DNA from: a virus
Virus record (IMG/VR): IMGVR_UViG_3300042464_000191
Coordinates: 1-64,000 of that record
DNA: 64,000 bases
Direction: 5' to 3' (one strand)
Shown: one piece after another, positions 2,605-52,600 of the stretch
Layout: each line of letters starts with the position of its first letter
Position numbering within the stretch: the first letter of the stretch is position 1
Program-made: the position numbers and the translations under genes
The notes under the pieces: model-generated
The model's input: the letters and a program-made list of their open reading frames with translations, nothing else
The model's database searches: none
Told to the model about the DNA's origin: nothing

Positions 2605-2607
2605 TAT

Positions 2608-9768: not shown

Positions 9769-9802
9769 ACATTGATTGAGTCTCTAGTTGCGAGGAAAAT
9801 AT

Positions 9803-13716: not shown

Positions 13717-14028
13717 ATGAATGTGTGTTCTTTTACGGGGTATCTTGTTGAAAACCCTAGGATATCAATGGAAGGCGATGTGGTGAAAGCTGAGTTTACG
13801 ATGGTGGTATATACTTATCGTAAAACAAGAAGCGGTGAGAAGAATAGAATACCTACCTATTTACAGTGCGAAGCGTGGCATACTGGTGCAGAAACTTTAG
13901 AAAAATATGCTACAAAAGGAACTAAATTGAACGTTCACGCTTCTGCTAAAAATGTATCTAAAGATAATAAGTCAGTTATTTTTAGAATAAACGAGTTTGA
14001 CTTCTGCAACCAAGAGTACGACTATTAA
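13717..14028 (+). CDS. ssb: Single-stranded DNA-binding protein
   Basis: A 103-residue OB-fold protein with the bacterial SSB layout: opening strand CSFTGYLVENPRI, then VKAEFTMVVYTYR, a flexible basic loop, LQCEAWHTGAETLEKYATKG (the conserved W and helix), and TKLNVHASAKN. It is shorter than E. coli SSB (178) and lacks the long Gly/Pro-rich linker and the DDDIPF-type tip, ending instead in QEYDY, which is acidic. It should coat ssDNA at the fork and in recombination. A strong AAGGAG lies 8 bases before the ATG. The gene has its own putative promoter, consistent with high demand. Confidence 0.85.
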   Translation: MNVCSFTGYLVENPRISMEGDVVKAEFTMVVYTYRKTRSGEKNRIPTYLQCEAWHTGAETLEKYATKGTKLNVHASAKNVSKDNKSVIFRINEFDFCNQEYDY

Positions 14029-14029
14029 T

Positions 14030-16809: not shown

Positions 16810-17800
16810 TAACTCTGTAAAAAGATTGATATCTATGGCTAATAGTACCAAGCCAGAGAAGTTTAATATTTTGACATTTCCAACTCACGAAAGATATGAG
16901 TCTCAGCTTTGTAAAACAGGGCATAATTTCTTCTCTTTCACGGTTCCAAATGCCAAGAAATGGAATACAAATCAATTAGCACCCCCAGAAAATTACTATA
17001 GTTTGCCAGAATCAAATCCTTGCGGGTTTCTAAATTACGACATGATTCTGGTGCAAAGTAAATTTTGGCAATTCCAAGTTGCTCAACAAATCAACCAGCA
17101 ACTAAGTCTACCAATAATATGCTTAGAGCATACTTTACCAACCCCACAAACATTAAGTCAACAAAATATAGAAGCTATGAAAAACATGCTTGGAGATATT
17201 AATATTTTTATCTCAGAGTATTCCAAAAAGTCTTGGGGTGTTGAGTATAACTCTTTGGTGATTCATCACGGAATAGACTCAGAAACATTTGCTCCGCTTG
17301 ACATAGAAAAGAAACCATATGTATTAACGGTTGCTAATGATTTTGTTAATCGTGACTATTGTTTAAATTATTCTGGATGGAAGAGAGTAACAGACGGCCT
17401 TACCACTAGATTAGTTGGGGATACAGATGGCCTGTCAAAATCAGCATCCTCAACAGAAGAACTGGTAAAAGAATATAATAGCTGCGGAGTATATTTTAAT
17501 AGCTCCACACTTAGTCCAATACCAACATCTTTACTTGAAGCAATGTCTTGTGGGTGTGCTATTGTATCGACAGCCACCTGTATGATTCCAGAAATAATCA
17601 CTAATGGTTATAATGGTTATATTTCTAATGACGAAGAAGAATTGAAAAAATATTTGCAGACTGTACTTAATGACGAAAAAGTGAGACAAGAGCTTGGGGC
17701 TAATGCGAGAAAGACTATTGTAGAGAGGTTCTCACAAGATAAGTTTCTTTCACAATGGAACGGTATATTCAATATGGTATATGAGGTTTCTACACGATGA
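16802..17800 (+). CDS. GT-B glycosyltransferase (GT4-like)
   Basis: A 332-residue glycosyltransferase with a reduced acceptor domain. The donor domain shows YVLTVANDFVNRDY and the signature TSLLEAMSCGCAIVST at about 242-257, followed by IITNGYNGYIS and a helix of the form ELGANARKTIVERFS, all standard for GT4 enzymes. The usual upstream glutamate of E-x7-E is replaced by a Pro/Thr segment (LSPIPTS), so the donor pocket may be atypical. Start ATG 16802 lies within the previous gene; the stop overlaps the next start in ATGA. Confidence 0.78.
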   Translation: MINNSVKRLISMANSTKPEKFNILTFPTHERYESQLCKTGHNFFSFTVPNAKKWNTNQLAPPENYYSLPESNPCGFLNYDMILVQSKFWQFQVAQQINQQLSLPIICLEHTLPTPQTLSQQNIEAMKNMLGDINIFISEYSKKSWGVEYNSLVIHHGIDSETFAPLDIEKKPYVLTVANDFVNRDYCLNYSGWKRVTDGLTTRLVGDTDGLSKSASSTEELVKEYNSCGVYFNSSTLSPIPTSLLEAMSCGCAIVSTATCMIPEIITNGYNGYISNDEEELKKYLQTVLNDEKVRQELGANARKTIVERFSQDKFLSQWNGIFNMVYEVSTR

Positions 17801-33582: not shown

Positions 33583-35253
33583 TTAATGATCCAATTCGTA
33601 TGTCCAACTTAAATTAATACTATATCTTCCCTCTTTTGGTGTCCAGCTTTCGCTTGGTGGATTAAGAAAATACTTTCTAACTCCCGGCTCGTATGCTGGA
33701 CTCAACTGTTTGATTAAAGTATTTAGCTGTGATCTAATTGGTTCTCTTAAACTTGGCTTAGATAATAGCAATGGGTTACGACCACTAGAATATGGTACAT
33801 CGGTGTAATCTAATAGAATTTCTATACCAACGTCTCGTCTATATTCTGTTCTGCCTCCGATATATTGTAAAACTGGTCCGGTTGTTCTACCAAGAACTGG
33901 TATAATAGCAAATACGTCGCCGGGATAGGTATCATTAACATTGATGCTTTCAGATAGTACCCCGCTGATGAAATTAGTTGGACGATTATCAAATTCTACA
34001 TTATATGTGATTTCGCCAGTAAATTCATTCGTTGCTAAAGCTATAGACTTTGGTTGACTATTTAGAGTTGTATTTGCAGCATTACAGGCTCTTTTATAAA
34101 TGTACGAGGTGATGCCATATGTTCCATTGTTACTTACTTCAAAGTATTTTGTTTTAGCGTTATCAAATGGGCTTGGTGTGCCAGTTGATGGAGTTATACC
34201 ATTGTATAGACTTCCACTTGCTGGTATTACTGATAAGCCTTTGATGGTTCCATTGATACTAGCAGATATAAATGGACTGTCTATACTAGCATTAATAGAT
34301 AGATTGTAATTCTCATAAGCAATTCCACTAGTAAGCAACCATGTATCTGTGATGCTAAAAGTGCCAGCGGTTTTATCAATATTTTCGGTACGTGTGTGGT
34401 TGGTTGCCGAATATACGCCAGTTAAAGATATAACATAATCGGATAAAGAAACCCCTAAAGTATGATTAGGATATTTAGCATATCCGCCATTACTATCATT
34501 TTGTATAACCGATTTTTTAAGAAAGTTTCTAGCCTCAAGCCAGCCGTATAATCTACTGGTAGCAGCATTGCCACTTGGGATAAAACCGTCTCTCCCTGTA
34601 GCTGTCAAGTTTCTAGTTAATCTATAGGTGCGTGGATTATGTGGCCCCAAATCTCCTCTAGTTTCTCCAATGCCCTCATCTACTTCCATAGACCAAGTTT
34701 CAGAAAAATCTTCCACCAATCCGCCAAATTCAGCAATTAATTCTATTTCTGTTTTGTTGCCAACATTATAGCCATCAGGCGCATATGAACTATCGATATA
34801 AACTTGATTGTTGTTTTTAAGAATAGAATCTGCTCTGAGATTAACAGTATATCTACATAGATCTACATAAACACCTTCTTCGAATGAGATACTAACTAGC
34901 TTGGGATAAAATACTATCGGTGGAGTATTGGCTGGAGCAAATTCGAATCTAGATGCTTCTAGTGCAAATAATTCTCGCAAAGCATTTTGCTTGGCAAAAA
35001 TAGATCCTAATCTTGGCAGATCACCACCACCTCCGTAGCTAATAGTTTCGCCTAATGGTCTATTGTAATTATTGTGGTGCAAACCAGTAGAAAATGGTGA
35101 ACCTTCATCTGCTAATATTGTTCCAGTTAATACAATATCATAAGATGAACCTAGTGTTCCGGTTTTATTTTTAATTGGTGTGCATGTTATAGACACAAGA
35201 GGTGTTGGTCGAATAACAGCCTGTAAACCATTACTTGTAGTAATTAATAGCAT
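33583..35253 (-). CDS. Tail protein, unknown family
   Basis: A 556-residue beta-rich protein. The N-terminal third (LLITTSNGLQAVIRPTP, YDIVLTGTILADEG) and the end (YSINLSWTYELDH) have the repeating strand pattern of tail or baseplate structural proteins; the middle is rich in Ser, Thr and Asn. No enzymatic motif. Its ATG overlaps the adhesin stop as TAATG, so expression is coupled to that giant gene, which points to a shared tail-tip assembly. Confidence 0.55.
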   Translation of the reverse strand: MLLITTSNGLQAVIRPTPLVSITCTPIKNKTGTLGSSYDIVLTGTILADEGSPFSTGLHHNNYNRPLGETISYGGGGDLPRLGSIFAKQNALRELFALEASRFEFAPANTPPIVFYPKLVSISFEEGVYVDLCRYTVNLRADSILKNNNQVYIDSSYAPDGYNVGNKTEIELIAEFGGLVEDFSETWSMEVDEGIGETRGDLGPHNPRTYRLTRNLTATGRDGFIPSGNAATSRLYGWLEARNFLKKSVIQNDSNGGYAKYPNHTLGVSLSDYVISLTGVYSATNHTRTENIDKTAGTFSITDTWLLTSGIAYENYNLSINASIDSPFISASINGTIKGLSVIPASGSLYNGITPSTGTPSPFDNAKTKYFEVSNNGTYGITSYIYKRACNAANTTLNSQPKSIALATNEFTGEITYNVEFDNRPTNFISGVLSESINVNDTYPGDVFAIIPVLGRTTGPVLQYIGGRTEYRRDVGIEILLDYTDVPYSSGRNPLLLSKPSLREPIRSQLNTLIKQLSPAYEPGVRKYFLNPPSESWTPKEGRYSINLSWTYELDH

Positions 35254-38200
35254 TATTTTCCTCTGATACTCAGATTAATGGTGTCAGTATTTAATCCTAT
35301 CCCGCTGGCAGTATACAATATCAAGCCGGATTCGGAAACAATGGTTGCATCTGGCGTATGCACATAAAGCATCAAGCCGGATGGATCGTTAGAAACGATG
35401 TCCATAACACTGCCGGTGTACATTCCTAGAGTATTATACACATTTGCTACGTCATCAACATGTGTAAATAAGTTCATATTATTATCAACGTCGATCTTTC
35501 CATCTATAAATAGTGGCATAATACCGCTATTTTGCGTACCATAAACATATTGACCATTTACCGAAGAAATATAGGGTCTATGGGAAATTAGACCCTTTGA
35601 CACTGGATCTTGCCCAGATGCTTCGATAAATATTTCGCCTTGATTGTTAGTGTAAACTATACCGCTGGCAAAATGCTTGAAATTAGCATTATTTTCATTA
35701 CTAAATCTTAACTGTACCGTTGGTACTCCAGATTCATTTCGTTCCCCAAAAATCTTTGCATCTATGTAGGCATCTGGGCTTTGAACGGCTGGAGCAACGC
35801 CACGTAACATAATATCATATGTATATGCCGCACCTGCATATTCTACATATTCATTGTCTACAGATCCACTAGCTGAGTATCCGTGATTCATGGCTCCGAT
35901 GCCAATAACGTAATCAGAATCTGATCTTCTTGCTCTATCTATAGATACTGACCTTCCGAACGCATCGTTTTCACTATAAGCTTGAGCGTTTGCTTTATAT
36001 CCCTGTGGTACAATTTTCTCTACCTTCGTCCATTTTTGTCTCTTAGTGGGCCAATCCACAATCTTGTTTTCAAATGTGAATGCGGCTCCGCGATTAAGTA
36101 CAGCTATACCACTATTTTCCATTGATGATCTTATGCCAGAACTTCCTAAATCAATTACGGTTCTGGATGGAATATCAAACTCGGGATTAAAGCACTTTCT
36201 TATGAAAGACCCAGAGGCGTAGGTATTAATGGAATAGTTCTCAAAGTCATGACCGGGAGCGCCAACTAGTAAAATATCTCCATCGATACTAACGTCGTAG
36301 CCGAACTGATCGGTTACAAAGCTATTAGCAGTTAAAAATTCATCGGTATAACTATTTGTGCCTAACTTAGATTCTGCTTGAGATTCGATACCATTAGTTA
36401 AGTCTTGACCAACATTTATATCTTCTGGTCTAAGCTTCTGAGTAAATTCCCAAGGTACTGTTCTTCCAGCAATTCCACTACCCATATAAGTTTTTTCAAA
36501 GATATAAACAGATCCAGCGCCACCATTATATGATGCTCTAATTCCAGACTGTGATCCACCTTCGATAAAGTATGACCAAGGCTTGTATTCATTTAAAGAA
36601 TACGCTGACAGTGGTGATCCAACTATTAGTTTATCTCCCTGTAAATCTATAGAGTATCCGAACAAGTCTCCCTTGAAGCCAGACGGAACTCTATCAAAAT
36701 CCAAGTAATCGTACCCCTTATCTTTCATAAGTTGTGGCATACCACCTTCTCTACCAGCATCTTCATACATAACACCTTCTATAATTCCACTAAATCTTGG
36801 CATAGCGCCAGCTTCAGATGCTAAAGATATAAATTCTGCAATCTTTGCTCTTTTCTTTCGTTCTACGGTTTCTGGGTCATCAAATTGACTCCAAGGATTA
36901 TCGGTGCGCTTAACATAAATGGGGTTGTATAGGGACTCTTTGTCAGTCAAAGATGATAAAGGAGTTTGATTTAAATTACCATTGAATAGGGTTGTTAATC
37001 CACTATTTGGAATAACACTATTGTATCTTATTGGACTTCCTCTTTCTGGAGACATTAATTTGGTTCTTTGATTGAACTGTCTTCCAGAATTTACTCCAGC
37101 AAAAAATGTTGGAGGATATAGGCTTCTTATAAATGCGACGGTATTAGCAGACATTCTTCCTTGATCGTCTACCATGCATCTACCTTGAACCAAACTTGAA
37201 TCACTGATAACAGTAATTCTAGATCTTTCATATCCAGAAGTAAACGAAGATGTTATCTCTTGTTCTTGTGCTGCTACAACTGGTCCGTCTTTAATAAGTT
37301 GACCACCCATGCCATTATCTAGGCATGTTTGTTCATTATTACAATACTTGGTATTGTCATTAGCTAATTCTTGAAACTTGATATTATAGTTTACAATTTC
37401 TGGCCTAGCAGCAGATATTAAATATGGTTCCCATCTATCAATAACGTCTTTGGTGGTAAATCTCTGTACTATTGGCATAGCCACGCCAGAAATAGCATGT
37501 AGTCTAATAGAGTGTGGTCTATAATCTATATTAGTATTATCTATAGCATAGTTGTTATATAGGTAAATTGAAATACTTGTAGCACCAGCAGTTGCTTGAC
37601 AATTAATTGTTTGAGTCTTTATTTTGTTGTTGGAGTCATTTCGTAGTTCGCCAACAAATCCAATGCTTGCTGTCTCAACCACAAACTTTGTTTCACTATC
37701 TGGAGGAGTATCATATATACTTGAATCTAAACCACTATTTAAATCTGGAAATGGAGACTTGGGGTTGGATCCAACATTGCTAATAGAAAAGTATAGTGGT
37801 CGATTTTCTGAAGGTAATTCAGACACTGTGTCAATGAAAATCTTATAACCAGAACCCTCTACAACCGGGAATGTAACCTTTGTTACTCCGGTTCTCATCT
37901 TCCAATATCCTAGCGTATCATACTTTGTATCATATATTGGTACATTATTAGCACAAACATTAACTGCATTTTCTCCTAAAGCCAATGGAACATAGTTAAC
38001 AGTTCCATTATAAGAAAATACGTCTATGGACGAGTTGACATTAAAGCCTTGAGAAATAAATGTATTGCCATTGAACAGTAGAGATCTAGCACTAGCACTG
38101 GCATATTTATTATCGACATTGAGATACAGTGGTTTAATATTGCAGAAATTGCTAAGTAAAGATGCTATGAAATTCATCTTAATATCGATTTCATTTTCTA

Positions 38201-41200
38201 TTAAACTATCAGTATTATATGTTATTACTAATCTCTTGTTGCCAAAATTTAACCAATTAAATAGATCTAATAGTTCTGTTTGATTTGGTAGATTAGTTGG
38301 ATCGGCTATCCAGCATACATCATCTGTAGAATATAGCTTGTTAGCATATCTGACTTCATTACCAGTATTCGTGAATAGCTCTGCTAAAATAGAATCTGGA
38401 TCAGCATCTGTAAAAGATGATCTTCCTGTCCAAGTGCCAGATCCTAAGAAAGCAACTAAAGATTCGCCATACCTTGTTCTTGCAACAGTATTTACATAGA
38501 AGTTAAGATTTTCGTCTCCCGTTCCAGAATATACAGCGGATTCAGATTCTGTTTTTGTTCCAGCAATGACAATGATTCTTGATGATGTGTTATTGAATTG
38601 TTGCGTAGCGCAATATACGCCATTTTCAGCAACCATCTGACGAGAAGTAATTAATCTTTCATCAGAAATGGCTTTTCCTTGTAAGACTGATTGTCTATCT
38701 GCAAATTGTTCTGGCTCAAAAAATACGCCAGCGGATTGATTATTACCGATATTGGTATTTAAAGAAATATAGTTATTACCACTGGCACTCCAATAGAACT
38801 GTGTGCCACTAGCCATATTGCCTTCGTCGAAAACATCTATGGTTCGATCAAATACTGTCTTGTAAATTGGATAATATCCAGATGAGTCTGGAGTAGCTGG
38901 TATAACAGTTTTTTCAACAATATAGTCAGCGGTCGATAGAATTGGAATTGGTTCAAATCCGGGTAGATCAAATCTATCCTCATCCTCAATTGGTTCGCAG
39001 CAAGACGGTTCGAATGTTTTGAATACATAAGGCCAGTTAACTGGATAAGTTAGCGGATATCCTCTGCAATCGGCGCAATAATCTTTCCATTCGGCTCTTA
39101 AGTCGCCATTGTGAACAAGTGGTAATTCGCATTTAGTATTTACTAATGCCCCCGGCTCACCATCATAACTAGGATATCGTCTATCGCAAGGCATGTATCG
39201 ATAATAATCCGGCATATGCATACGAATATCACCAACGCCATAACCCTTAAGTGGAACACCATAAGTAAATGTTGATGTGATACGTTCCGGCTTAGTAGAT
39301 GGTATAATGTGTCCTTCTACCATACAGCCAGAAACCAGAGCTTCATATTGATTTCTTGCTCCGTGAATACGCATCCTAGACTTTAATCTATCTAGAATTT
39401 TATTGATGATCTCGTTAGACTTAGCATATATGCCATCTTTTTCCCAAACAGGATCATTGCCAACTAATACTAGATTTCTATCACCAAGAGCAAGCCATTG
39501 TGCGATATTATCACCAACTTCTTCACTCAATGCATCTACTTCTGGAGTAATGATAAAGGCTAGTCCAGCATCCTGTGGAATATCTACTTCTGTAAACTCT
39601 GTCTTTCTGAAATTTTTATCAGAGAATATACCACTTAAGTAATTAAAGTGACCAGAATCAATTGGATCATTCAAGCTTTCTTGTAGATTACCAAACTTAG
39701 TATATTCTACAACTGAATTATGAGGGTAGTATTTGCGAGATTCAAATACGCGAACCGCACCGGCGTTGACATAAGACTTCCAAGTTGGATGAACATTACC
39801 AGTATTTAGATTGTAAATATTGTTTGGATCATCGTATCCATCATTCTTGTAGTATATATTGTTATCTTCCCACTCGTTTGTGCTATCAGTTGGCGCGCCG
39901 AAAGCAACAATACTGCCATCTTCATTGACGGCTGTACTATATCCAAGTCGTGATGTAGGAACAAATCTTTCGGTAATAAAGTCCCAAGTACCAATAGAAG
40001 AAATATCTCCATATCCATAAGATAAGATATTTTGATATTCTTGAATATTTAGATATTTTCTTGCTTCAAATTTTTCTGTTGATGTTAGGCTAACATATAA
40101 TTCTTGTCCAGCAACTATTGCCCCACGGTTTTGAATAGTTGTATTATAGATTTCTTTTAGGTTCGTGTATCTAGAATCTAAACCGCCAGTGGCAGAGATT
40201 TTATAATCAAGCCACCTAGAAATAGTTTGATAAAGTCGCTGCTTTTCTGCGGATTTATATTCATAGACCCTACAAGAATCTGAAATATATGGCGATCCTA
40301 CGGCGATAACTTCAGCATTATCACTAATAGAAACAGAGTGTCCGAATCTATCTGGAATACCATAAGCGGTGATGGGTGTAGGAATTTCTTGTGTAAGATT
40401 CCAAGAGCCACTTTCTTTTTCAAACACATATACTCTACCACCGCTATCTGGTGGGAAATTAAATTGTGTGAGATTTGGGTTAAAGTATTGTTCTCCAACC
40501 CCAGATGTTAGGAATCTAACTTGATCATTAGCAACTAATCTTCCTGTATCTAAAACATGGTCGAGAATATCTATACTCATTGACACCCAATTTTCGGCAG
40601 CGCCAAAGTTTGGAGTAAATTCTGAAAATGCTCCAGATGCTGGTGTGTTATAGAAATCTTTCAATCCACTAGCAAAGCTATATTCTTTGTAGTATTGGAT
40701 GAATTGATCTATTGCTGGAGAAAGAGCATCCCTACCCAATGACCTTGAATTATCTACATATAATCCAAGAATAACTGGGATATTGTTGTTTAATTTAGTC
40801 TCATCAATCGGGAAAGCTTTATGAAACGCTTCCTTGATTCCACTCAAACATTTTGCAGTCTGAGAAATAAATAGATCCGATCCCGGTCTACCTTGATTTC
40901 GGCTAACTTTTTGCTTGATTATAAAGTTGGGCTTGGGATCTGGAAAATCTGGCGTGGTTCTATTGGTAGAATCAGCGATTGGCTCGCATATTATTAGCTT
41001 TACATCAAAATTAATTGGTGGATTTGCGAAGTATTTGTATAGTATATCTTTATTGCGAATACTAGATAGTACAGTCCTGTAATCTGTTGTGTTTTGACCG
41101 GTGCCATATGATGGTGCGAACTCGTCTGTGAAAATCACTAATCCAATCTGCACCCCAGATGTTTGTATACCTTCGAATGTTCTGCTCCACTTGGCGTTTG

Positions 41201-44200
41201 GCCCACCAACAACCAGAACCTGTCTTGAATCTTCTCCAAGTGACTTTTCACCGGATGTAGATAAAGCTAAATCCAAAGAATGTCCAAGTTGTCTTCCTTC
41301 TTGACCAACTGTCCAATACCTTTCTTTGGCTGGTAATGGTAAAGATACATTATCAATAGAATACTTTTCTACTTCTCTGTAATAATCTTTGATAAAGCCA
41401 GATGGTAATGTTAATTTAGTCTCTAGTTTCCAATCGGACTTGTCTTGTCCAGAGGGCCAAGTATAAGATGTTGGCCTTGGATCTCTCTTGTAAATAAATA
41501 CCGCACCGGCTTCTTCAAGATTATAAGACTGTTCACCATCATCATAAGAAATTGAATGAAATGGAGCGCCAACGGCCATAACATCTCGTTTAATGGCAAC
41601 AGATTTTCCAAACTTGTCATTGGCTTGTCTATAATCATCTCCAAATTTATCGGCAACTAATTTGATTCCAGAGTAATCTACTGATTCATTAGTGCCATAT
41701 TCCATCTCAATGAATTCAACTGGAAGAGGGACGCTTTCATTATTTCCTGTTTGTCCGTCAACAATTATTTGATATGGTGAATTTGGTAATAGTCCAGTAT
41801 ATTTTCTAATACCGTAGAAGTGACCGCTATATCCTATTTCAGTCTTGAATCCACTTGCTTCAAGATTAGTATAAGTATTTTTTGCTCTAAAAATTCCACC
41901 ATCTATGCAAGAATATGGAACACTCCATAGCTGCTCATGCATATAAACGCTATCTTCTTTGCAGGCATGGCTACTGTTGCAGTTTCCATAGCATAATAAA
42001 TCTACGCCGCGAATTTCATCATTAGCTTCTAAGAAAGCGTAGTCATTATCATCGACATTGATGTTTGAGCCGGTATTGTCGGAATCCCATACTATAGCCT
42101 GTCTAGCACCAAACACTTGATTAAATGGGCTATAGTTTATAGTAAATAGATTACATGTTCCACTTGCAAATGTGCGTGGCTCAACAGTATTAATATATAA
42201 CCTAAGTACATTGTCACCGCCGTCATATGTATAAGCAATTGATCCGGCTGGCTGTGTCTCTAAATGTAATGGTAAAGAACCCTTTGCAAACACTGACGAA
42301 AGCTGTGGAGAAGCTGTCAATGAGAAATTTAAAGATGCATTATTGAAATCAGTCTGAATAATATTTTGAGTAAATAATCTTAGAGATCCACTAGCAGACT
42401 GACTAGTGATATCATTAATAGTAACAAGTGGTAGTATTTCATCGTTGAATTTATTGCTCCTACCAGCAACATACAGATTCGGTCCAAGATAATATTCTGA
42501 TCCAAAGAAATCGCCAAAATTGCCGCCACCGGTTGAACTATCTAGTGATGATTTGTTGAATGTAACTAATCTTAGACTTGAACTGTCATAATATGCACCA
42601 GATGCAAACAAATTAAATACAGAAGAAGATACTGGTAGGTAATCTCCTTCTACGAAAAGGTCAAAGTTGGTAGAGTAAATACCATAGGTATCAACAAACA
42701 AATTAAGATTGTCTAGCCATTTCTTTTCACCACTGGTACTCAATCCTAGTTGAGTATTGTGATCCTGCGAGGTCAGTAAAGCATTTTCTAAACGAACATT
42801 GGCGGTGTGTATTTTGATTATCGATTCAAATGGAGAGCCAGATGGATATACTAAATCATACTGCAAGAACATATCATTTATATCCTTGGAGTAGTATTTT
42901 TCAGTAAATTCAGTCACATTCCTTTCTGGGTCAAAATTAGCCCACGGCTCTGACTTATCAAACAAATCACCGGGAGTAAATGTACTACTTATTTTTTGCC
43001 AACATCCAGATGGTTCCAAGAAATGGATGGAGCGATTAATTAAACCCCAATTTTTCTTGCTTGGTCTATCTGTTGGATTTTGATTTGTAGTATATAAACT
43101 AACAATTACCTTTGGACCGATCTTACCATCGTTCCATACAATATTATTGTATGTGTCATGTTGTAAAACCGTATCTACAACTATAGCATCTTCAACAAAC
43201 TCATATCCTCTTGGTAAGGTCTTAGAGATTCTTGGATGTGCCGAGTAAAATCTAGAATTGTTCTCAGAATCCTCTACGTTATCTAGATAGAATCTTAAGA
43301 AATCATTCTCTATTTGGGTATGATATGCCAAGCCGGAAGCGTAGACGTTGGATGGCAGCGGTTGATTTGTAATATCAGAGTATGGTCTGCCATCGTGCTT
43401 AAGTCTATGGATTATGAAATCCTTACCTTCTCGCTTTGTAAAACCATCAAAGTCTGCCGAGAAAGAACAAATTTTAAAGTCACCAAGCTTCCAAGAAGAA
43501 ATATCTTCATCAATATAAGAATGTAATTCGTAGTTTGATCGCAAGAAACTATAAGCAGTTGTTTGCTTTAAATATCTATCGGGATTTGAATGTACAATAT
43601 TCCCACTTGTAGATACGCCTACTTCGTGAACAAATATATTTGAATTTATTAATGTTGTATTATTGTATCCTATTATAAGATCGCCTGTGCTATCTACTAA
43701 ATTAATGGGGCCAATAGATAAAATATCTATAACATCACCATTTGCTGAAGCAGCATAAAGACGTATAATACCACTCGGGTTTTTATCATATGTGAATAGC
43801 AACGATAAAGGATATTGGTAATTATCATATTCTTGACCATAATCCGCGTATATATTGAGATTTTCATCAACTGCGGAAATATATAATCTATTATCTTGAC
43901 TTCCATCAAAGCCAACAATTATACCGGCGTTGGTAAAACTTTGCACTTTAGATATTAATAGATTATCTCCAGTATTATAATCAACACCCGGAGTGAAGTT
44001 GAGATAAATTGCAAATCCATTATCGATTGAGATATTTCTAAAATTTATATTGTCAATGCCAGATAAAGCAATCGCTGAATCAAATGAGTCGATCAAGTGT
44101 CCATATAGTGGGTTATCGTCTTGTGTCCAATCTATAGTAGTATAGTCTGTTGGATTGCTAAATAACTGTGTGTTACTGAATCTCCATCCTAAATTTTTGA

Positions 44201-46595
44201 GAATATTGTTCGACCCAGTGTAATAACCACTGTTTGCAAAATCGCTAGATATAATCCAGTTTCCACTTGAATTAGTGAAATCATAATAACCGTTTAAGAA
44301 TGGGTGGTTCGCTTCTGGATTGAAGAAGGAAAAATCAAATTGATTGGGGTTGTATGGACCATTTACAATATTGCCATCTACGCCTCTCCATCTTCTAGCG
44401 TAGTTATTCTTGGACTCTACTGTAAATGCACTTGGTATATTTTCGATTAATAATGATTCTGAATCAAATATTGGATCAGATATTTTCTTAGGAGATGGCT
44501 TTAGATTGATAGTTCTTAAAGCAATATCTGTGGCTATAGGTCTACCAAATGTAGAGAGCATTAGACCATTTGCGGGCTTGTATGTTATAACAAGCTGTGC
44601 TGTAGCAATGGTTGCTCCACTTGGAAGTGGATATAGATCTAAATATAGATTCTCAAAATATGAGCTATTGGAATAGTCGATAGAACTTCCTACGTCAACA
44701 TTATCTTTATAAATAGCTAGGGGTATTGTGTATTCTTGAAATTGAATGCTGTTTACTACTGGCGTACTTGATAAAGCATAGTGATCTTTAGCTGGATTAA
44801 GTGTGATATCACGCACATAGTATTGTGATTTATCGCTAAGTGTTTCAGATGATATACCTAAGTCATCAATGTGTTTAAATCCAGACACATCTGGAACATC
44901 TCCATTTTGAGATTCTGAATTTTGTAAGAAAGCCCCAATTTTAGGAGTAATATTGAGCAAACCATCATCGCTATAACCAACAACATCTAAGGCATAATCA
45001 CGACTACCAACAGCTTTCTTAGCTATTACCTTGAGTGAAATATCTTGGATAGTAAAGAAGTGATCAACTTGTTCAAGGGATTGAAGTCTAGCAACATCGA
45101 ACTGATTTTTTCTTCCAAATGCGAACGGGCCTTCTGAATATCCGGTTACATTTCTTGGTGAGCTATGTCCAAACTTTAATGTTAATCTTCCACTATCATT
45201 AAGTGGTGTGCTATTAATAAGTGTCACATAATCGTATATAGCTGTGTTCTGTAATTTTGATGCCAAGTATTTACTACCACTAGCAGAAGTGTTATAAGCA
45301 GTATTATCAAAGGAATCTGGAGAAGATTCCCATAAGCTATATGTTTCTGGATATACATCAATATCTTCATTGTATTGAATAACATCAATGGGTACTAGAT
45401 TTCGGGTTAATAAAAGACCCTCTTGATTGATTTCGGTGACTACTGGTAAATAAGCATTTCTGACGATGCCAAAGCCGCCACTATTAGCAATTTCAATAGC
45501 AGAAATACGAATAGCATTATCTGGATTAAGCGAAAAATTTTGGGTTTGAGTTGATAGCGGCGACCCGTCTACTGATAGATAGTCATTATTACTAGCAAGC
45601 AATACATCTATCTTGCATGTATCTTCGTATCCCTTATCAAACCCTTCTGCGAATGGATCGTCTAAACACTGAATATTAAAATCAATATTGAGTGTATATC
45701 CGCTAGCTTCCTCCATGAGAGGATAGTTATCTTCCCAAGTATTTAGAAGTAGATTGTTGATCTCTGGTTCAGAAATATATGTTGTAAAGTTTACATAGTC
45801 TTTGGAGTAATCGGCATCTCCGCGAATAACTATATCCTTATATTTAATGATCAGATTACCAGATGGATCTTCTAACCTAATATTATGTAATCTATACTGT
45901 GGTGGAATATCAGAAAAATATGTTGATACTGGCGCAGCGGCTCTTATGAATAAGAAACTATTTTCAGCATGGAATAAAGGCGTAGTAACTTCGCACTTAT
46001 ATCTAAAGTTTCCACTAGTAAACACAGATGACGGTTGTATAAACGAATCTTTTTCATCAGATATAGTTTTGCCACTTTTACCATGCTTTGTGAAGTTTCC
46101 AATGCTAACGCCCTCATCGATGTTTGTATAAAGCTCTGATTGATTAGAGTACTTATCTACAAAGAAACTATTATTTAATGAAGATGAGATATCTTGAATG
46201 GGATATAGTTTTTCTGATGCTATGAAATTATCAAAGCTATTGATTTGAGTTAAATATCCACCAAATTTTTCTGTCTTTACATCATCGATCTCTGAGCTTG
46301 ATTGTACTCTTGCTCTGATAACGCCTTTAACTTGAAGTTTGGCACGAATATTTCCTTCGGCAGATTCTGATAAATCAAATAAGCCGTGGGATAATAGATA
46401 TTTGCCTTTGAGTTTTGATACTCCAGCAACTTTGGCCTTCACTCCCGGCCTTAATGAGTTACTTGGATTTATGTCACTATTTCCAGCGATTCTTATATAT
46501 GGATTGCTGGTGACTGTGGCTCTGGCGGTAAACTTACTAACGCCAGATGTTCTAGACGAATGTCTAGTTGTGCAAAGTAAACAAATATCAGACAT
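35253..46595 (-). CDS. Giant FG-GAP adhesin with VWA-like insert and lectin-like domain
   Basis: About 3780 residues, probably a tail-tip adhesin. Residues about 846-989 resemble a LamG/ConA-type lectin domain. Seven FG-GAP repeats (FG-x-S core, then V-G-A/S-P) lie near 1657, 1765, 2081, 2213, 3310, 3428 and 3544; examples are FGKSVAIKRDVMAVGAP and FGYDVSIDGDILLVGAP. Between repeats 2 and 3 lies a VWA-like insert with hydrophobic strand VILGLYVDNSRSLG and a DxSxS site at D1948, S1950, S1952. A second insert of about 1000 residues between repeats 4 and 5 holds two similar Rossmann-like units. FG-GAP repeats fold as beta-propeller blades and bind surfaces, so host attachment is likely. ATG 46595, 17 bases after the tape-measure stop, is preferred; GTG 46649 would add 18 residues overlapping it. 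Confidence 0.7.
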   Translation of the reverse strand: MSDICLLCTTRHSSRTSGVSKFTARATVTSNPYIRIAGNSDINPSNSLRPGVKAKVAGVSKLKGKYLLSHGLFDLSESAEGNIRAKLQVKGVIRARVQSSSEIDDVKTEKFGGYLTQINSFDNFIASEKLYPIQDISSSLNNSFFVDKYSNQSELYTNIDEGVSIGNFTKHGKSGKTISDEKDSFIQPSSVFTSGNFRYKCEVTTPLFHAENSFLFIRAAAPVSTYFSDIPPQYRLHNIRLEDPSGNLIIKYKDIVIRGDADYSKDYVNFTTYISEPEINNLLLNTWEDNYPLMEEASGYTLNIDFNIQCLDDPFAEGFDKGYEDTCKIDVLLASNNDYLSVDGSPLSTQTQNFSLNPDNAIRISAIEIANSGGFGIVRNAYLPVVTEINQEGLLLTRNLVPIDVIQYNEDIDVYPETYSLWESSPDSFDNTAYNTSASGSKYLASKLQNTAIYDYVTLINSTPLNDSGRLTLKFGHSSPRNVTGYSEGPFAFGRKNQFDVARLQSLEQVDHFFTIQDISLKVIAKKAVGSRDYALDVVGYSDDGLLNITPKIGAFLQNSESQNGDVPDVSGFKHIDDLGISSETLSDKSQYYVRDITLNPAKDHYALSSTPVVNSIQFQEYTIPLAIYKDNVDVGSSIDYSNSSYFENLYLDLYPLPSGATIATAQLVITYKPANGLMLSTFGRPIATDIALRTINLKPSPKKISDPIFDSESLLIENIPSAFTVESKNNYARRWRGVDGNIVNGPYNPNQFDFSFFNPEANHPFLNGYYDFTNSSGNWIISSDFANSGYYTGSNNILKNLGWRFSNTQLFSNPTDYTTIDWTQDDNPLYGHLIDSFDSAIALSGIDNINFRNISIDNGFAIYLNFTPGVDYNTGDNLLISKVQSFTNAGIIVGFDGSQDNRLYISAVDENLNIYADYGQEYDNYQYPLSLLFTYDKNPSGIIRLYAASANGDVIDILSIGPINLVDSTGDLIIGYNNTTLINSNIFVHEVGVSTSGNIVHSNPDRYLKQTTAYSFLRSNYELHSYIDEDISSWKLGDFKICSFSADFDGFTKREGKDFIIHRLKHDGRPYSDITNQPLPSNVYASGLAYHTQIENDFLRFYLDNVEDSENNSRFYSAHPRISKTLPRGYEFVEDAIVVDTVLQHDTYNNIVWNDGKIGPKVIVSLYTTNQNPTDRPSKKNWGLINRSIHFLEPSGCWQKISSTFTPGDLFDKSEPWANFDPERNVTEFTEKYYSKDINDMFLQYDLVYPSGSPFESIIKIHTANVRLENALLTSQDHNTQLGLSTSGEKKWLDNLNLFVDTYGIYSTNFDLFVEGDYLPVSSSVFNLFASGAYYDSSSLRLVTFNKSSLDSSTGGGNFGDFFGSEYYLGPNLYVAGRSNKFNDEILPLVTINDITSQSASGSLRLFTQNIIQTDFNNASLNFSLTASPQLSSVFAKGSLPLHLETQPAGSIAYTYDGGDNVLRLYINTVEPRTFASGTCNLFTINYSPFNQVFGARQAIVWDSDNTGSNINVDDNDYAFLEANDEIRGVDLLCYGNCNSSHACKEDSVYMHEQLWSVPYSCIDGGIFRAKNTYTNLEASGFKTEIGYSGHFYGIRKYTGLLPNSPYQIIVDGQTGNNESVPLPVEFIEMEYGTNESVDYSGIKLVADKFGDDYRQANDKFGKSVAIKRDVMAVGAPFHSISYDDGEQSYNLEEAGAVFIYKRDPRPTSYTWPSGQDKSDWKLETKLTLPSGFIKDYYREVEKYSIDNVSLPLPAKERYWTVGQEGRQLGHSLDLALSTSGEKSLGEDSRQVLVVGGPNAKWSRTFEGIQTSGVQIGLVIFTDEFAPSYGTGQNTTDYRTVLSSIRNKDILYKYFANPPINFDVKLIICEPIADSTNRTTPDFPDPKPNFIIKQKVSRNQGRPGSDLFISQTAKCLSGIKEAFHKAFPIDETKLNNNIPVILGLYVDNSRSLGRDALSPAIDQFIQYYKEYSFASGLKDFYNTPASGAFSEFTPNFGAAENWVSMSIDILDHVLDTGRLVANDQVRFLTSGVGEQYFNPNLTQFNFPPDSGGRVYVFEKESGSWNLTQEIPTPITAYGIPDRFGHSVSISDNAEVIAVGSPYISDSCRVYEYKSAEKQRLYQTISRWLDYKISATGGLDSRYTNLKEIYNTTIQNRGAIVAGQELYVSLTSTEKFEARKYLNIQEYQNILSYGYGDISSIGTWDFITERFVPTSRLGYSTAVNEDGSIVAFGAPTDSTNEWEDNNIYYKNDGYDDPNNIYNLNTGNVHPTWKSYVNAGAVRVFESRKYYPHNSVVEYTKFGNLQESLNDPIDSGHFNYLSGIFSDKNFRKTEFTEVDIPQDAGLAFIITPEVDALSEEVGDNIAQWLALGDRNLVLVGNDPVWEKDGIYAKSNEIINKILDRLKSRMRIHGARNQYEALVSGCMVEGHIIPSTKPERITSTFTYGVPLKGYGVGDIRMHMPDYYRYMPCDRRYPSYDGEPGALVNTKCELPLVHNGDLRAEWKDYCADCRGYPLTYPVNWPYVFKTFEPSCCEPIEDEDRFDLPGFEPIPILSTADYIVEKTVIPATPDSSGYYPIYKTVFDRTIDVFDEGNMASGTQFYWSASGNNYISLNTNIGNNQSAGVFFEPEQFADRQSVLQGKAISDERLITSRQMVAENGVYCATQQFNNTSSRIIVIAGTKTESESAVYSGTGDENLNFYVNTVARTRYGESLVAFLGSGTWTGRSSFTDADPDSILAELFTNTGNEVRYANKLYSTDDVCWIADPTNLPNQTELLDLFNWLNFGNKRLVITYNTDSLIENEIDIKMNFIASLLSNFCNIKPLYLNVDNKYASASARSLLFNGNTFISQGFNVNSSIDVFSYNGTVNYVPLALGENAVNVCANNVPIYDTKYDTLGYWKMRTGVTKVTFPVVEGSGYKIFIDTVSELPSENRPLYFSISNVGSNPKSPFPDLNSGLDSSIYDTPPDSETKFVVETASIGFVGELRNDSNNKIKTQTINCQATAGATSISIYLYNNYAIDNTNIDYRPHSIRLHAISGVAMPIVQRFTTKDVIDRWEPYLISAARPEIVNYNIKFQELANDNTKYCNNEQTCLDNGMGGQLIKDGPVVAAQEQEITSSFTSGYERSRITVISDSSLVQGRCMVDDQGRMSANTVAFIRSLYPPTFFAGVNSGRQFNQRTKLMSPERGSPIRYNSVIPNSGLTTLFNGNLNQTPLSSLTDKESLYNPIYVKRTDNPWSQFDDPETVERKKRAKIAEFISLASEAGAMPRFSGIIEGVMYEDAGREGGMPQLMKDKGYDYLDFDRVPSGFKGDLFGYSIDLQGDKLIVGSPLSAYSLNEYKPWSYFIEGGSQSGIRASYNGGAGSVYIFEKTYMGSGIAGRTVPWEFTQKLRPEDINVGQDLTNGIESQAESKLGTNSYTDEFLTANSFVTDQFGYDVSIDGDILLVGAPGHDFENYSINTYASGSFIRKCFNPEFDIPSRTVIDLGSSGIRSSMENSGIAVLNRGAAFTFENKIVDWPTKRQKWTKVEKIVPQGYKANAQAYSENDAFGRSVSIDRARRSDSDYVIGIGAMNHGYSASGSVDNEYVEYAGAAYTYDIMLRGVAPAVQSPDAYIDAKIFGERNESGVPTVQLRFSNENNANFKHFASGIVYTNNQGEIFIEASGQDPVSKGLISHRPYISSVNGQYVYGTQNSGIMPLFIDGKIDVDNNMNLFTHVDDVANVYNTLGMYTGSVMDIVSNDPSGLMLYVHTPDATIVSESGLILYTASGIGLNTDTINLSIRGK

Positions 46596-46611
46596 ATTTA
46601 ATCCATTAATA

Positions 46612-49600
46612 TTAAATTGGGGCAGATGGACTGCCGGGTAATGATCCACTACTTAACTTTAATTTACCATCATTTCCAATGCTAGCATTTTGAAGCTTGT
46701 TGGACACCTCTGTGAGTACAGCCTGTTGAACGTCTTTGGTGAGCTTGGCTAGGAAATCTCCACCACTTAAATTTACATTAATATTGGTGGCATCTAATTT
46801 GATACTAAGATTAGTGTTAGCTAGTTTATCTATATTAGCCGATAGATCAACATTAAACTTATCTAATGTTGCCATTAATTTATTGACAATTTCTGGATCT
46901 ATTCCACCGGAAGCCTGTATTGGAGTAGTTGTTCCTGCGGTCTGGTTGGTAAGAGTACCGCCACTTAGAGTTTGTTGACTAGCTCTTCCCGGCTGAGTTT
47001 GACTAACTTGCATGGCTTGTACACCAGATTGATTGAGTAGTTCATTTGCTTTTTCTGGAGTTACTAGCGATGCTGGTGGTATATTACTCATCGGGGTTGC
47101 GACGGCTTCTGCCGTTGCCTTTGCTTGAGCTTCTTGCTGTGCGGCAGCTTCTGTTTGTGCTTGTTGTGCAGCCTTTTGTTGCTCAACATATTGCTTGTAT
47201 TCTTGAGTATCTGTTCCAGCGCCACTTAACATACTTGGCAACCAATCGTTGGCGGTTCTTTCTTGAATTCTTCTAGCCTCTAAATCTTTGAGTTCTTTTT
47301 GTGCTGTGGCAACACCAGTTTGATCACCCTTGGCTTGTGCTGCGGCTAATTGATTTTCTCTCATGGCCTGCTCTTTGGCCCATGTTCTTTCTTGTACATT
47401 TAATCCAGTAGCATCTACTGTGGCAGCTTTCATCTTTTCTGTTTTTGCTGCGGCTTGTGATGCCGCCATAGCATCCTTAGTAAAGTCCTTCATTACATAG
47501 CCAGCTTCTACAAGTTTACCAACTGGATCAACGAATCCTTCTAATGCGCCAGCGGCAGAATCGTAAGCAAATCCAGCAGTATCTCTTGTTTGCGCCCTTG
47601 CTAATCCAGCATCAGACTTGCCTTGCATTTTAGCATTATAAGCAGATGGATCATAGGCAAATTCTGCAAGATTAGTAACACCACTGATGGCGGTTCCAAG
47701 ACCTAAACCTCCACCCTTTGTTAATAAACTTCCAGCGAATTTACCAACACCACTTCCAGCAACCTTTGCTAAAGTTTGACCGCCAAGTAAACCCGCCCTA
47801 CCAGCCAACGTTGAACCGGCAGTCTTGGCTGCTTGCTGACCAAACATTCCGCCAGCATTTGCTAAACCGCTGCGTCCTACATTGAAGCCTTTAAGTAAAT
47901 TGCCACCTGCGGTTCCAGCGGCACTTAATCCTCTTTGTGCCATAGGTAATGCTCTTAGTCCTAATCTTTGAGCTTGAATACCAACCGCTCTACCCTGAGT
48001 AGCTAAAGAGCCACCAAGTTTACTTATTGCAGACGGAGCGCGTAATCCAAGTCTTTGAGCTTGAATACTAGCGGCTCTAACGCCGGTTCCAACTTTATTA
48101 CCTAGTCTTTGTGCGCCAACTCCAGCTTTTTGTGCTAATGTAAATGCCTCATCTTCCATACCACTGCCAACAAGACCTCTACCAAAACCAAAGTCTTTTA
48201 CTAAGTTAGATGCTCCAGAAACTAAACCTCGACCACCAACAGCGTTAATGCCTCTTTGTGCTAAACTAGATGCTCCAGAAGCTAATGGTGATAATCTATT
48301 ACCAATTGCTCCAACTCTTTGACCAAGAGCCATTGCTTTGCTACCGAATGTGGGTGCGGTTGTGCGAGACAGGCCAGTTCTAAAGTTTTGGAAACCTTGA
48401 ACTCCCTTTTCAATTAAAGCGCCAGCTTTTCCAGCCCTAGTAGAAGGAGTTAATCCTTGTCTTTGTAAACTTCGTCCAGATTGTAAATAATTGTATTGCT
48501 GTGCTGTATTAGCTGGTAAATTCTGTGCAAAATTTTGAGCTTTAACACTAAATCTGCCAAGTCTAGCAGGAGCAGTTTCACCAGCCTGTGCTGCAAAGCC
48601 AGCTTGTTCTAAACCTCTACCTATTCCAAAACTTGCGGCACCATTTCTTATGGCCGTTGTTGTATTTTGTACGCCGTATCCAAGTTTGCCAACCCTGCTT
48701 AATCCACCGCTACTCATTCCGATCTTGGCAACGTCCATGCCAGCCCTAAATCTACCGGCGGCACCACCAACGGCATTAACGGCTGATGGTCCAACTGCAT
48801 ATCCTGTGGCTGCTAATCCGGTGCCTCTTCTTATTGATCCGAATATATCTCTATTAACCGGCTCTCCAGCCGCAGCTACAGTGGCAGCACTAACTCCACC
48901 GGCAACACCAGCAGCAACTCGACCGCCAGTTCCACCGGTTCCACCAACTCCACCAGCACCTCCACCACCAGCTACGCGACCGGCTGTTCCAGCGGCGGCT
49001 GTAGCAGCGGCATTGGTTGTTGCAGCACCACCAGTACCGCCAGCACCGCCAGATGTTGCTGGAGTAGATGGACCGCCAAGCTTTAATGTTTCACCGCCAG
49101 CAAGCTTGATTTCTGCTTGTTCTACATTAATCTTAGCTGTTCGAAGCTTCATGGCTGCTAAATCAGCTTGTACTTGACCAGCGTCAGCTAGCTCATTTGA
49201 TAATCCACGAATATTAGCATTTATTCTTTCTTCTTCAGCGGTTGTTCTGGCCGTTAATTGTGCGGCTCTTGGATCAGTTACACCTCTGGCTGCTAATGAT
49301 GCTCCTGCGGCTCTTTCTGTTAAGCCGCCAGCGCCAGCAAGTCTTACGCCATAAAGTTCTTGTACTCCAGCCTCTTGTTGTCTTTGAATATCAGTATAAG
49401 CAGCACCAAGAGCTTTGGCACCGAATTGATTCATTAATGTTTCATTACCAGTAGCGATAGCGGCAGTAGCACCAACTGCGGCTTGTTGTTCAAAGAATTT
49501 GTCAACATCGCCAGCTATAAGAGCGTCTAACGAATCTTTTTCAAGTTTATTCTTTTCTTGAATAAGCTTTAATTCGTCTTCTTGTATCTTGATCAACTCT

Positions 49601-52600
49601 CTGATGGTGCTGATCTGGTCTTTACTTGCTTTTTCTAGATCAGCTTGAATAGCATCATCTACAACGCCCTGTGTACCAGCCATTCCTCCTTCAACGGTTC
49701 TTTTTCCTTCTATTCCAGCGAATTGTTGTCGTATCTCGTCATTTCTGCGTCTTAATTGATCTACACCGCCACCTTGTAGGTTAGAAAGTCTCATTCTTTC
49801 TGCACCAGCGTTAGCCCTAGCAATAACGTTAGCTTGACGTTCAGCATTTGTAACAGCTTTACCGCCATATTTACCTTGAAGTTCTCTAGCTTCCATTTGG
49901 ATGGATAGAGCTTCTTTTTGGGCTTCAATGTAGTTGCGTTCAGCTTCTATTCTACGCTTAGTAAGTTCGATTAATTGTTGATGTATCTTAGCATAATTAT
50001 CAACAATCTCTTGCATTACTTTACTAGCTTCTTGACTTACACCCTCTAGAGTTTCTCCAAGTTTATCATAATCTCCTCTATCTATGGCATCAATAATATC
50101 TTGATCAATTGCTCCCATTGAATCAAGAATTCTGTTACGCACATCTTCACCAACTCCGCTAGCGTCTAATTGGGCGGCAACCTCTTTTTTAAATACATCA
50201 GCAATACTATTGGCTTCCATTCCCCTTAAATCTTGAGACTGAAGGTTACGCTTAATATTCTCAAATATGGTTGGGAAGTTACGTTGTACAGTTGCGGCAG
50301 CACCAATGTTTTCTCTAAACTTAGTGATCTCGGCTTCGGATGCTCCAAATTGTTTGAAGACACCGCTTACTTCATCTAATGCTGAATTAACTTCGTTTTC
50401 ACTAATCGCTTGACCGGCCTTAGTAAGTGATGCCTCTAATGTTGCTACTGCTTGTTGTGCAGGAACAGCCCCAACTTCAAGATTCGCTACGAAATTATTT
50501 AGCCTTAAAGCAGCAGCTTCTGAAGTAGCACTAACGGTTCTAAATCCAAGATTAATAGCAGCAAATCTCTTTCTTGCAAGTTCTATCTCAGTAGATAGAT
50601 TCTTAAAGCTTTGTTCTAAGAAATTTATTTCATCATCTATTTGTGCTATATCTAAACCAATAGTTTCGGCCTGTTGCTTATTGCCAGATTTTTCAGCGGC
50701 TGCTTGTTGTGCCTTAAGATTGTCTCTTTGCTGTTTAAGCTCTGTAGGAGTTAATATTTGTCTAGATCCATCTGGACCTCTAGTAGCGTTACTAATAGTA
50801 GTGTATACATCCGATTCTGATCTACCGCGATAAATGTTCTCACGCATAGCTTGAGAAATATTACCTCTCATAGATTCAAGATTTTGATTTCTAAATGCTC
50901 GCCTCTGCTTGGATGTATCCGCTATTTCTCTATCAATACGCTCATTTCTACCAGCACCAGACTCAACGCCCAATAATCCAGCTATACCTAAAGTACCAAC
51001 TCGTAATGCCCCTCTACCAAAACCGCTGAGAGTACCACTCCTACTATTTTCTTGTGCAGCAATAGCTCTATCATATGCGGCAGATTGTGCAGCCATTTGG
51101 GCTGCTCCAGATGCAGCTAATCTCTTTAATGCTTCTGTAGCAGAAATAGATCCAGTTTCTAGATCTTTCATAATTTGAGCAGAATCTTTTGTTCTCTGCT
51201 CAAAGGCTTTGGTGGTCTTAGATGCATTTGCTTGGGCGTCAGCTAATGCTATGGCTGATGCCCTGTTTCTACCTCCAAATAGTTCGCTTACGGCATCAGT
51301 AAGATAACTGGCGATTGGTAAATTAGCAAACACTCTACCTACACCAGCACCAATTGCGGCACCTATTGGGCCACCAACTATTAATCCAATAATTGCTCCA
51401 GCGGAAGTACCAACATTAGCACCCTCAAGATTGGTTTGACCACGGGCAGCTTTTCTAGCACCCTCAACGTCTCCAAGTTCAATAGCTTTATTTAGTTTTG
51501 CTGTTTGGTCGAATAGTGCTTTGAATATTGTATTGATAGAATAAACAGCTAATGTAACACCAGCTAATGAACCAGCAAATTTAGCCAATCCTCTGGTTAC
51601 TGTAGCGATTTCTGGTCCAAATTTAGCTAATCCGGGTATTTGTTCAGCACCTAATCTCGCATAAGTGCCAGCACGATTAGCAAACTTACCACCTTTACCA
51701 GATAATAAGTCAAAAATACTACTTAAATTTTGTTTATCAAGTTGTATTTTAAAAGCTTCTAAAGCAAACCCAACGCTAGCTAATGTTGTTGTAAGACCTA
51801 GCATACCGTGAGTGAGTTTTAATATTACGCCAGAGCTTTCGTCTACTGCTGGTAAAAATCCTTGTGCTAAACTCGATATAGTTGATGCAGCAAAGAATTT
51901 ATTACTATTTATAACCTCACCAATGCTACGTCTTTGATCGTCTTGAGCGTCACTAATTCTATCTGTTGTATCAACAAATCTTGCTACAGATTGAGTAGCG
52001 GCTGTCATATTTGGTAATGAGCCGGGAGCGCCCATTGGTAAAGTAGCTCCACCGGCTGCAAATTTTTGAACACCAACAACTCCACCCTTTGCATATTTGC
52101 CAACCTTGTTCATGCGGTGTAATGAACTATATCCGATCTTTTGGGCAGAAGCACGATTAATAACAAACTCACCGGGAGTTAATAATGCTGGAACAGTATC
52201 AGTACCAACATTTCCACCAGTAGCAAATCTAGCAACTCTAGTCGATCTTGGACCCTTGGTTCGTAAAGCGTCCATCGCTGGTTGCTTGCTGCCACCCTGA
52301 GTAAAGATCATATTAGCAAGTGGAATGCCAAATAATTGACTTAGATATTCTGCAACTCCCGGCACTCTTTGAGACTTACTAAGAATAGATAATTTTCCGG
52401 GTTGTAATTGTCCAGACTTAATTGCTGCTTGTAGTTCTTTTCCGAATGCTGTTAAAGGTGCTGATGTAACATCTTTTAATCTAGCCTGTGGATCGCGGAA
52501 ATATTTTTCTAATGCAGCTGATTGTTGACCAGATGTTTTAGCCATACCATAAGCTTTATCGCCAATTGTACGCTTGATAGTTCTGTCGATGTCGATAGCT

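What the first reader, a model, noticed from the sequence alone, without database searches (positions are those of the whole stretch)
35253..46595. Integrin-alpha-like layout in a phage adhesin: seven FG-GAP repeats with a VWA-like insert between 2 and 3
Seven FG-GAP repeats can be read near residues 1657, 1765, 2081, 2213, 3310, 3428 and 3544. Between repeats 2 and 3 lies a segment with a hydrophobic strand and a D-x-S-x-S metal-site motif (D1948, S1950, S1952), like a VWA/I domain. Integrin alpha chains with an I domain also have a seven-bladed FG-GAP propeller with the I domain between blades 2 and 3. A phage with the same topology would be a striking convergence or transfer. A LamG-like domain at 846-989 adds a second binding module.
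Basis: partly seen in the sequence, partly recalled or inferred. Interest (0 to 1): 0.8.

Follow-up and report, generated by a model that had tools for sequence, protein, structure and literature searches.

The report
Integrin-type propeller in giant phage protein
A very large tail-region protein of an uncultured phage appears to carry the same kind of seven-bladed propeller that integrins use to grip other cells, with an α/β domain bearing a VWA-like metal-site motif plugged into it, but the plug sits inside blade 2 rather than between blades 2 and 3, so it is an independent arrangement and not a phage integrin.

Summary
The core observation holds. The gene is on the minus strand (46649→35253, 3798 aa), directly downstream of the tape-measure gene. 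FG-GAP_2 matches at E=6.7e-20, and an independent repeat HMM finds the seven claimed sites across 23 homologues and none elsewhere. AlphaFold2 models of blades 1-4 (own protein) and 5-7 (homologue) both match integrin α-chains best (Z 16.4 and 12.5, above WD40 propellers). The two arcs could not be modelled together, so closure into one ring is inferred. D1966-x-S-x-S is kept in 22 of 23 homologues and follows a strand in a confidently predicted α/β domain.

The strict integrin-αI layout fails. The insert lies inside blade 2 (between strands 2 and 3), whereas integrin αI follows the end of blade 2. DxSxS sits on a late strand, not the first, so the domain is either a circularly permuted VWA or another Rossmann-like domain; my tests do not settle which. 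Integrin Ca2+ loops are missing. LamG was not confirmed.

New here: a DUF4350/IFT52-like domain between blades 4 and 5 is itself split by about 660 variable residues. The propeller and its α/β inserts are conserved; the variable parts are likelier host-recognition sites.

The parts
35253..46649 (-). Gene for the 3798-aa protein (GTG 46649; alternative ATG 46595)
   Evidence: full-length homologues in viral contigs
41970..46649 (-). N-terminal module, residues 1-1560; a separate ORF in several relatives
41400..41639 (-). Blade 1 (residues 1671-1750)
   Evidence: FG-GAP_2 best stretch, HMM, model
41175..41297 (-). Blade 2, strands 1 and 2 (residues 1785-1825)
   Evidence: weakest in the window protein; HMM hit in 10 of 23 homologues
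40470..41174 (-). Alpha/beta domain inserted inside blade 2 (residues 1826-2060)
   Evidence: pLDDT about 90; alignment
41121..41129 (-). T-D-E at the end of the first strand of the insert (residues 1841-1843)
   Evidence: T/S-D-E-F in 20 of 23 homologues
40740..40754 (-). D-x-S-x-S motif (residues 1966-1970)
   Evidence: 22 of 23 homologues
40374..40448 (-). Blade 2, strands 3 and 4 (residues 2068-2092)
39960..40358 (-). Blade 3 (residues 2098-2230) with a helical insertion at 2136-2215
39645..39959 (-). Blade 4 (residues 2231-2335)
39300..39632 (-). DUF4350/IFT52-like domain, first half (residues 2340-2450)
   Evidence: PF14258 in 9 of 23 homologues
37320..39299 (-). Variable insertion in the DUF4350-like domain (residues 2451-3110): second alpha/beta domain and beta domains
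37095..37319 (-). DUF4350/IFT52-like domain, second half (residues 3111-3185)
   Evidence: IFT52 match spans model residues 1..816
35775..36719 (-). Blades 5-7 (residues 3311-3625)
46612..55122 (-). Tape measure gene directly upstream
   Evidence: PhageMin_Tail E=2.2e-23; PHROG tape measure
33583..35253 (-). Next gene (556 aa, unknown); an ORF of 524-626 aa lies in the same place in relatives

Best explanation
It is a giant tail-tip or baseplate-region protein of a tailed phage whose C-terminal module is built on a seven-bladed integrin-type (FG-GAP) beta-propeller. Three insertions grow out of the propeller: a conserved alpha/beta domain with a DxSxS motif inside blade 2, a helical insert in blade 3, and between blades 4 and 5 a DUF4350/IFT52-like domain that itself holds a large variable insertion. 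The likely working is that the propeller and its two alpha/beta domains form a conserved platform near the end of the tail tube, and that the variable domains held out from it contact the host. The DxSxS and TDE residues probably bind a divalent metal and mediate a conserved protein or glycan contact. Shown by computation: repeat number, conserved residues, predicted folds of the arcs, gene neighbourhood, conservation pattern. Inferred: closure of the seven blades into one ring, virion location, metal binding, adhesion.
For: Seven sites by an independent HMM, none elsewhere; FG-GAP_2 in 23 of 23 proteins; integrin alpha-chains fill the top rows for both arcs, Z 16.4 against 13.3 for the best other propeller and 12.5 against about 10.4; blades 5-7 align to the C-terminal blades of integrin alpha5; insert at pLDDT about 90; DxSxS in 22 of 23; split DUF4350/IFT52 domain; tape measure gene directly upstream, same order in relatives; conserved core against variable modules.
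Against: No model spans all seven blades (1200 aa limit), and blades 5-7 were modelled in a homologue with pTM 0.38, so ring closure is not shown. Foldseek alone gave no PDB match below E 0.001. The adhesin role rests on gene position only; the DxSxS domain is about as conserved as the propeller, unlike a typical host-range determinant.
Confidence: 0.6

Rival explanations
1. True integrin-alpha analogue: the blade-2 insert is a circularly permuted VWA domain with a working metal site that binds the host receptor directly, so the protein works like an I-domain integrin.
For: DxSxS in 22 of 23 and T/S-D-E-F in 20 of 23; order of strands and helices fits a VWA entered at strand 4; first Foldseek PDB match is ArnB, a VWA protein, at E 1.3e-3, probability 0.44; the best rotation in HHalign joins the two halves as expected.
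Against: No VWA hit by HMMER in native or permuted order; local HHalign aligns only the motif; the junction test is noisy; the domain is conserved, not variable.
Confidence: 0.25
2. Structural hub: the propeller and its inserts only assemble the tail tip or baseplate; other proteins recognise the host. The DxSxS domain is an unrelated Rossmann-like fold.
For: Propeller and insert are well conserved across the family; Foldseek also gives generic Rossmann and alpha/beta-hydrolase matches; the gene sits next to the tape measure gene.
Against: The protein also carries large variable segments; conservation of D-x-S-x-S beyond fold needs suggests a site.
Confidence: 0.25
3. The seven repeats do not form one propeller: two separate arcs belong to different assemblies or pair between subunits.
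For: About 1000 residues separate repeats 4 and 5, and no single model covers both arcs.
Against: The number is seven in the family; both arcs match integrin-type propellers, the second one its C-terminal three blades.
Confidence: 0.15

Closest known systems
Integrin alpha subunit N-terminal seven-bladed propeller with alphaI domain (alphaL, alphaM, alphaX)
   Same: Seven FG-GAP blades; best structural match for both arcs; an alpha/beta domain inserted at the second blade
   Different: Insert is inside blade 2, not after its end; DxSxS not on the first strand; no Ca2+ loops in the window protein; about 1000-residue insertion between blades 4 and 5; phage gene
Bacterial integrin-type beta-propeller proteins (PMC3192720)
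   Same: Seven FG-GAP repeats outside animals
   Different: Those are described with conserved Ca2+-binding sites; here the blades are FG-GAP_2 type with short loops and giant insertions
FG-GAP proteins of giant viruses and uncultured Caudovirales (e.g. A0A5J6VJ74, A0A6J5S3H5)
   Same: Foldseek matches (E 1.8e-6 and 4.8e-4)
   Different: Shared blade fold; whether any has the same insertions was not examined
DUF4350 / IFT52 N-terminal domain
   Same: Pfam match in 9 of 23 proteins; IFT52 5fmr_C Z 10.5
   Different: Inserted between propeller blades and split by about 660 residues

Membership tests
Integrin-type seven-bladed FG-GAP propeller | Seven FG-GAP repeats | tested here: met
Integrin-type seven-bladed FG-GAP propeller | Blade fold closest to integrin alpha among propellers | tested here: met
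   top 35 rows and top 42 rows are integrin alpha-chains
Integrin-type seven-bladed FG-GAP propeller | Blades close into one seven-bladed ring | tested here: inconclusive
   only separate 4-blade and 3-blade models were possible
Integrin-type seven-bladed FG-GAP propeller | Ca2+-binding loops in blades 5-7 (and 4 in some) | tested here: not met
   D-x-[DN]-x-[DNS]-G between strands 1 and 2 is absent from the seven blades of the window protein; a degenerate form in blade 4 of 10 and blade 6 of 2 proteins of the family
Integrin alphaI arrangement | Domain inserted at the end of blade 2, before blade 3 | tested here: not met
   insert lies between strands 2 and 3 of blade 2; alphaI site from PMC12422189
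VWA / I domain | D-x-S-x-S motif after a hydrophobic strand | tested here: met
   22 of 23 proteins; strand in model
VWA / I domain | Motif on the first strand of the domain | tested here: not met
   strands at model residues 207-216, 255-265 and 286-290 precede strand 336-341; a circular permutation would explain it
VWA / I domain | Rossmann fold with strand order 3-2-1-4-5-6 and complete MIDAS (T and D motifs) | tested here: inconclusive
   alpha/beta fold predicted, strand order not visible; profile tests weak
VWA / I domain | Recognised by VWA sequence profiles | tested here: inconclusive
   no Pfam or PDB profile hit, native or permuted
   no LamG match in 16 proteins; not modelled
DUF4350/IFT52-like domain | Pfam profile and fold | tested here: met
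   PF14258 in 9 of 23, best E 9.7e-5; 5fmr_C Z 10.5
Phage tail adhesin | Present in the virion and binds the host | not testable with these tools
   gene position next to the tape measure gene only

The most novel reading that the evidence does not exclude
A phage tail protein independently evolved an integrin-alpha-like adhesive head: a closed seven-bladed FG-GAP propeller carrying a circularly permuted VWA domain with a working metal site inside blade 2, and a second plug-in platform between blades 4 and 5 that displays variable host-binding domains.
Probability: 0.25. Interest if true: 0.82.

Novelty: new variant of a known kind. Interest (0 to 1): 0.6.

Why it matters
Integrins gained their I domain early in chordate evolution (PMC12422189). 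A phage family that plugged a DxSxS α/β domain into the second blade of the same propeller type would be an independent test of why that part of the propeller tolerates and exploits insertions. It also points to a large, uncharacterised family of tail proteins (about 22 distinct homologues here, no match in 50,697 phage records) whose likely host-recognition parts can now be located: the variable segments held by the conserved propeller.

Tried and rejected
Named relatives: no DNA or protein match in the phage records for the propeller region or the N-module, and none for the neighbouring 1615-aa gene. A scan of viral contigs with the single protein found nothing; going through the tape measure gene and then an alignment worked. 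PF01839 (classic FG-GAP) found nothing in the record; PF14312 did. HMMER with the insert, native and permuted, gave no VWA in PDB or Pfam. HHalign rotation and junction tests for a circular permutation are suggestive but not significant: the expected piece ranks first of 222, but the same strand in neighbouring frames ranks 11th, 62nd and 112th. Integrin α6 appeared by sequence only at E 0.78. Cyanophage host tested through psbA-type genes: none in 21 records. Bacterial MAG contigs with homologues (SAR202, Verrucomicrobiales) are probably misbinned phage contigs and were not taken as a host. VWA domains did not appear among the 50 rows of the structural second look, which propellers filled. 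Literature: no paper in the held library was found that describes an FG-GAP phage tail adhesin.

Full report
What is there. The window is part of a 71,623-base IMG/VR record. The gene follows the tape measure gene (46612-55122; PhageMin_Tail E=2.2e-23; PHROG tape measure families). In relatives the gene again lies next to the tape measure gene, with an ORF of 524-626 aa after it.

Relatives. No phage record in the annotated collection has a similar protein. Through the tape measure gene and then an alignment I found about 22 distinct homologues in viral contigs of up to 167 kb, 35-51% identical. In five of them the protein is encoded by two ORFs, four split near residue 1560 and one near 1300, so the N-terminal part and the propeller-bearing part are separable modules.

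Repeats. FG-GAP_2 matches the window protein at E=6.7e-20 and all 23 proteins of the family alignment. An HMM made from FG-GAP repeats of two other phage proteins hits the seven sites (21, 10, 23, 25, 28, 23 and 9 hits over 23 proteins) and nothing else in them; shuffled controls gave no hit at i-E<=0.01. Sites 2 and 7 are the weakest, and site 2 of the window protein itself is seen only through its homologues and the model.

Fold. Two AlphaFold2 jobs were allowed. Model 1, window residues 1625-2460 with 23 sequences, has mean pLDDT 77.5. Its 35 best structural matches are all integrin α-chains, led by a chain at Z 16.4 over 209 residues; the best other propeller is at 13.3. Foldseek alone gave no PDB match below E 0.001. 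Model 2, homologue L080 over the equivalent of 2346-3632, has mean pLDDT 73.7 and pTM 0.38. Blades 5-7 match residues 272-452 of integrin α5, its C-terminal blades, at Z 12.5 against about 10.4 for other propellers. Four plus three makes seven, but no single model closes the ring.

The insert in blade 2. Blade 2 strands 1 and 2 (QLGHSLDL, RQVLVVGG) precede residues 1826-2060, and strands 3 and 4 (GGRVYVFEK, SWNLTQEIP) follow them. [quoted passage not shown] So 'between repeats 2 and 3' is right for the motifs and wrong for the blades. The domain is predicted at about 90 pLDDT as β-α-β-β-α-β-α-β-α. D-x-S/T-x-S follows the strand at 1960-1965 and is kept in 22 of 23; the first strand ends in T/S-D-E-F in 20 of 23. 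In a canonical VWA the DxSxS follows strand 1 and an acidic residue follows strand 4 (established knowledge of the family), so the order here would fit a VWA entered at strand 4. Profile tests lean that way without reaching significance: local HHalign aligns only the motif, the best rotation joins the two halves as expected, but the junction test is noisy. HMMER finds no VWA in either order. The first Foldseek PDB match is ArnB, a VWA protein, but at probability 0.44. The fold is therefore α/β with a VWA-like motif; VWA proper is unproven.

The other insertions. A helical insertion (2136-2215) interrupts blade 3. Between blades 4 and 5 lies a DUF4350-like domain: nine of 23 proteins match PF14258, and the IFT52 N-terminal domain matches model residues 1 to 816 at Z 10.5 with 166 aligned. 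That span contains about 650 other residues, so the domain is split; the segment within it holds a second α/β region and β-domains.

How it may work. Conservation separates core from variable parts. Identity over aligned residues is 65% in the first half of the DUF4350-like domain, about 60% in blade 2 strands 3-4 with blade 3 and in blade 4, 49% in the DxSxS domain and 49% in blades 5-7; against 29-37% in the segment inside the DUF4350-like domain, 35% in the LamG-like region and 32% in 1300-1560. The propeller with its α/β domains looks like a conserved platform, and the variable segments are better candidates for host-specific binding. That the protein is at the tail tip, binds metal and binds hosts is inference from gene order, motif and this pattern.

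Kinship. Integrin-type propellers occur in bacteria (PMC3192720), and FG-GAP proteins of giant viruses and an uncultured phage match by fold. Nothing suggests transfer from animals. The window protein lacks the integrin Ca2+ loops. I file it as a new variant of the FG-GAP propeller rather than a phage integrin; that it works like an integrin head remains possible and untested.

Noticed in passing
window 9788-13665 (+): The DNA polymerase III alpha-like gene is in two ORFs (9788-11431 and 12064-13665) matching successive parts of phrog_405, with a DnaQ-type exonuclease ORF (11418-12104; RNase_T E=1.7e-14) between them.
   Followed up: partly
L051 2530-5835 (contig IMGVR_UViG_3300040856_003409): A contig with a related tape measure gene but no match to this protein encodes a 1102-aa ORF with seven nearly identical tandem FG-GAP repeats without inserts, a plain propeller.
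   Followed up: partly
L056, L065, L071, L077, L081: In these relatives the giant protein is encoded by two ORFs, split near residue 1560 (near 1300 in L077), so module fusion or fission has happened in the family.
   Followed up: partly
L082, L083, L084: Homologues lie on contigs binned into a SAR202 MAG (two different contigs) and a Verrucomicrobiales MAG; probably misbinned phage, possibly a host clue.
   Followed up: no
window 13997-17800 (+): Three successive ORFs match the same phage glycosyltransferase family, phrog_2170.
   Followed up: no
window 37320-39299 (-): Conserved cysteines and a second alpha/beta region lie in the variable insertion of the DUF4350-like domain; not identified.
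   Followed up: no
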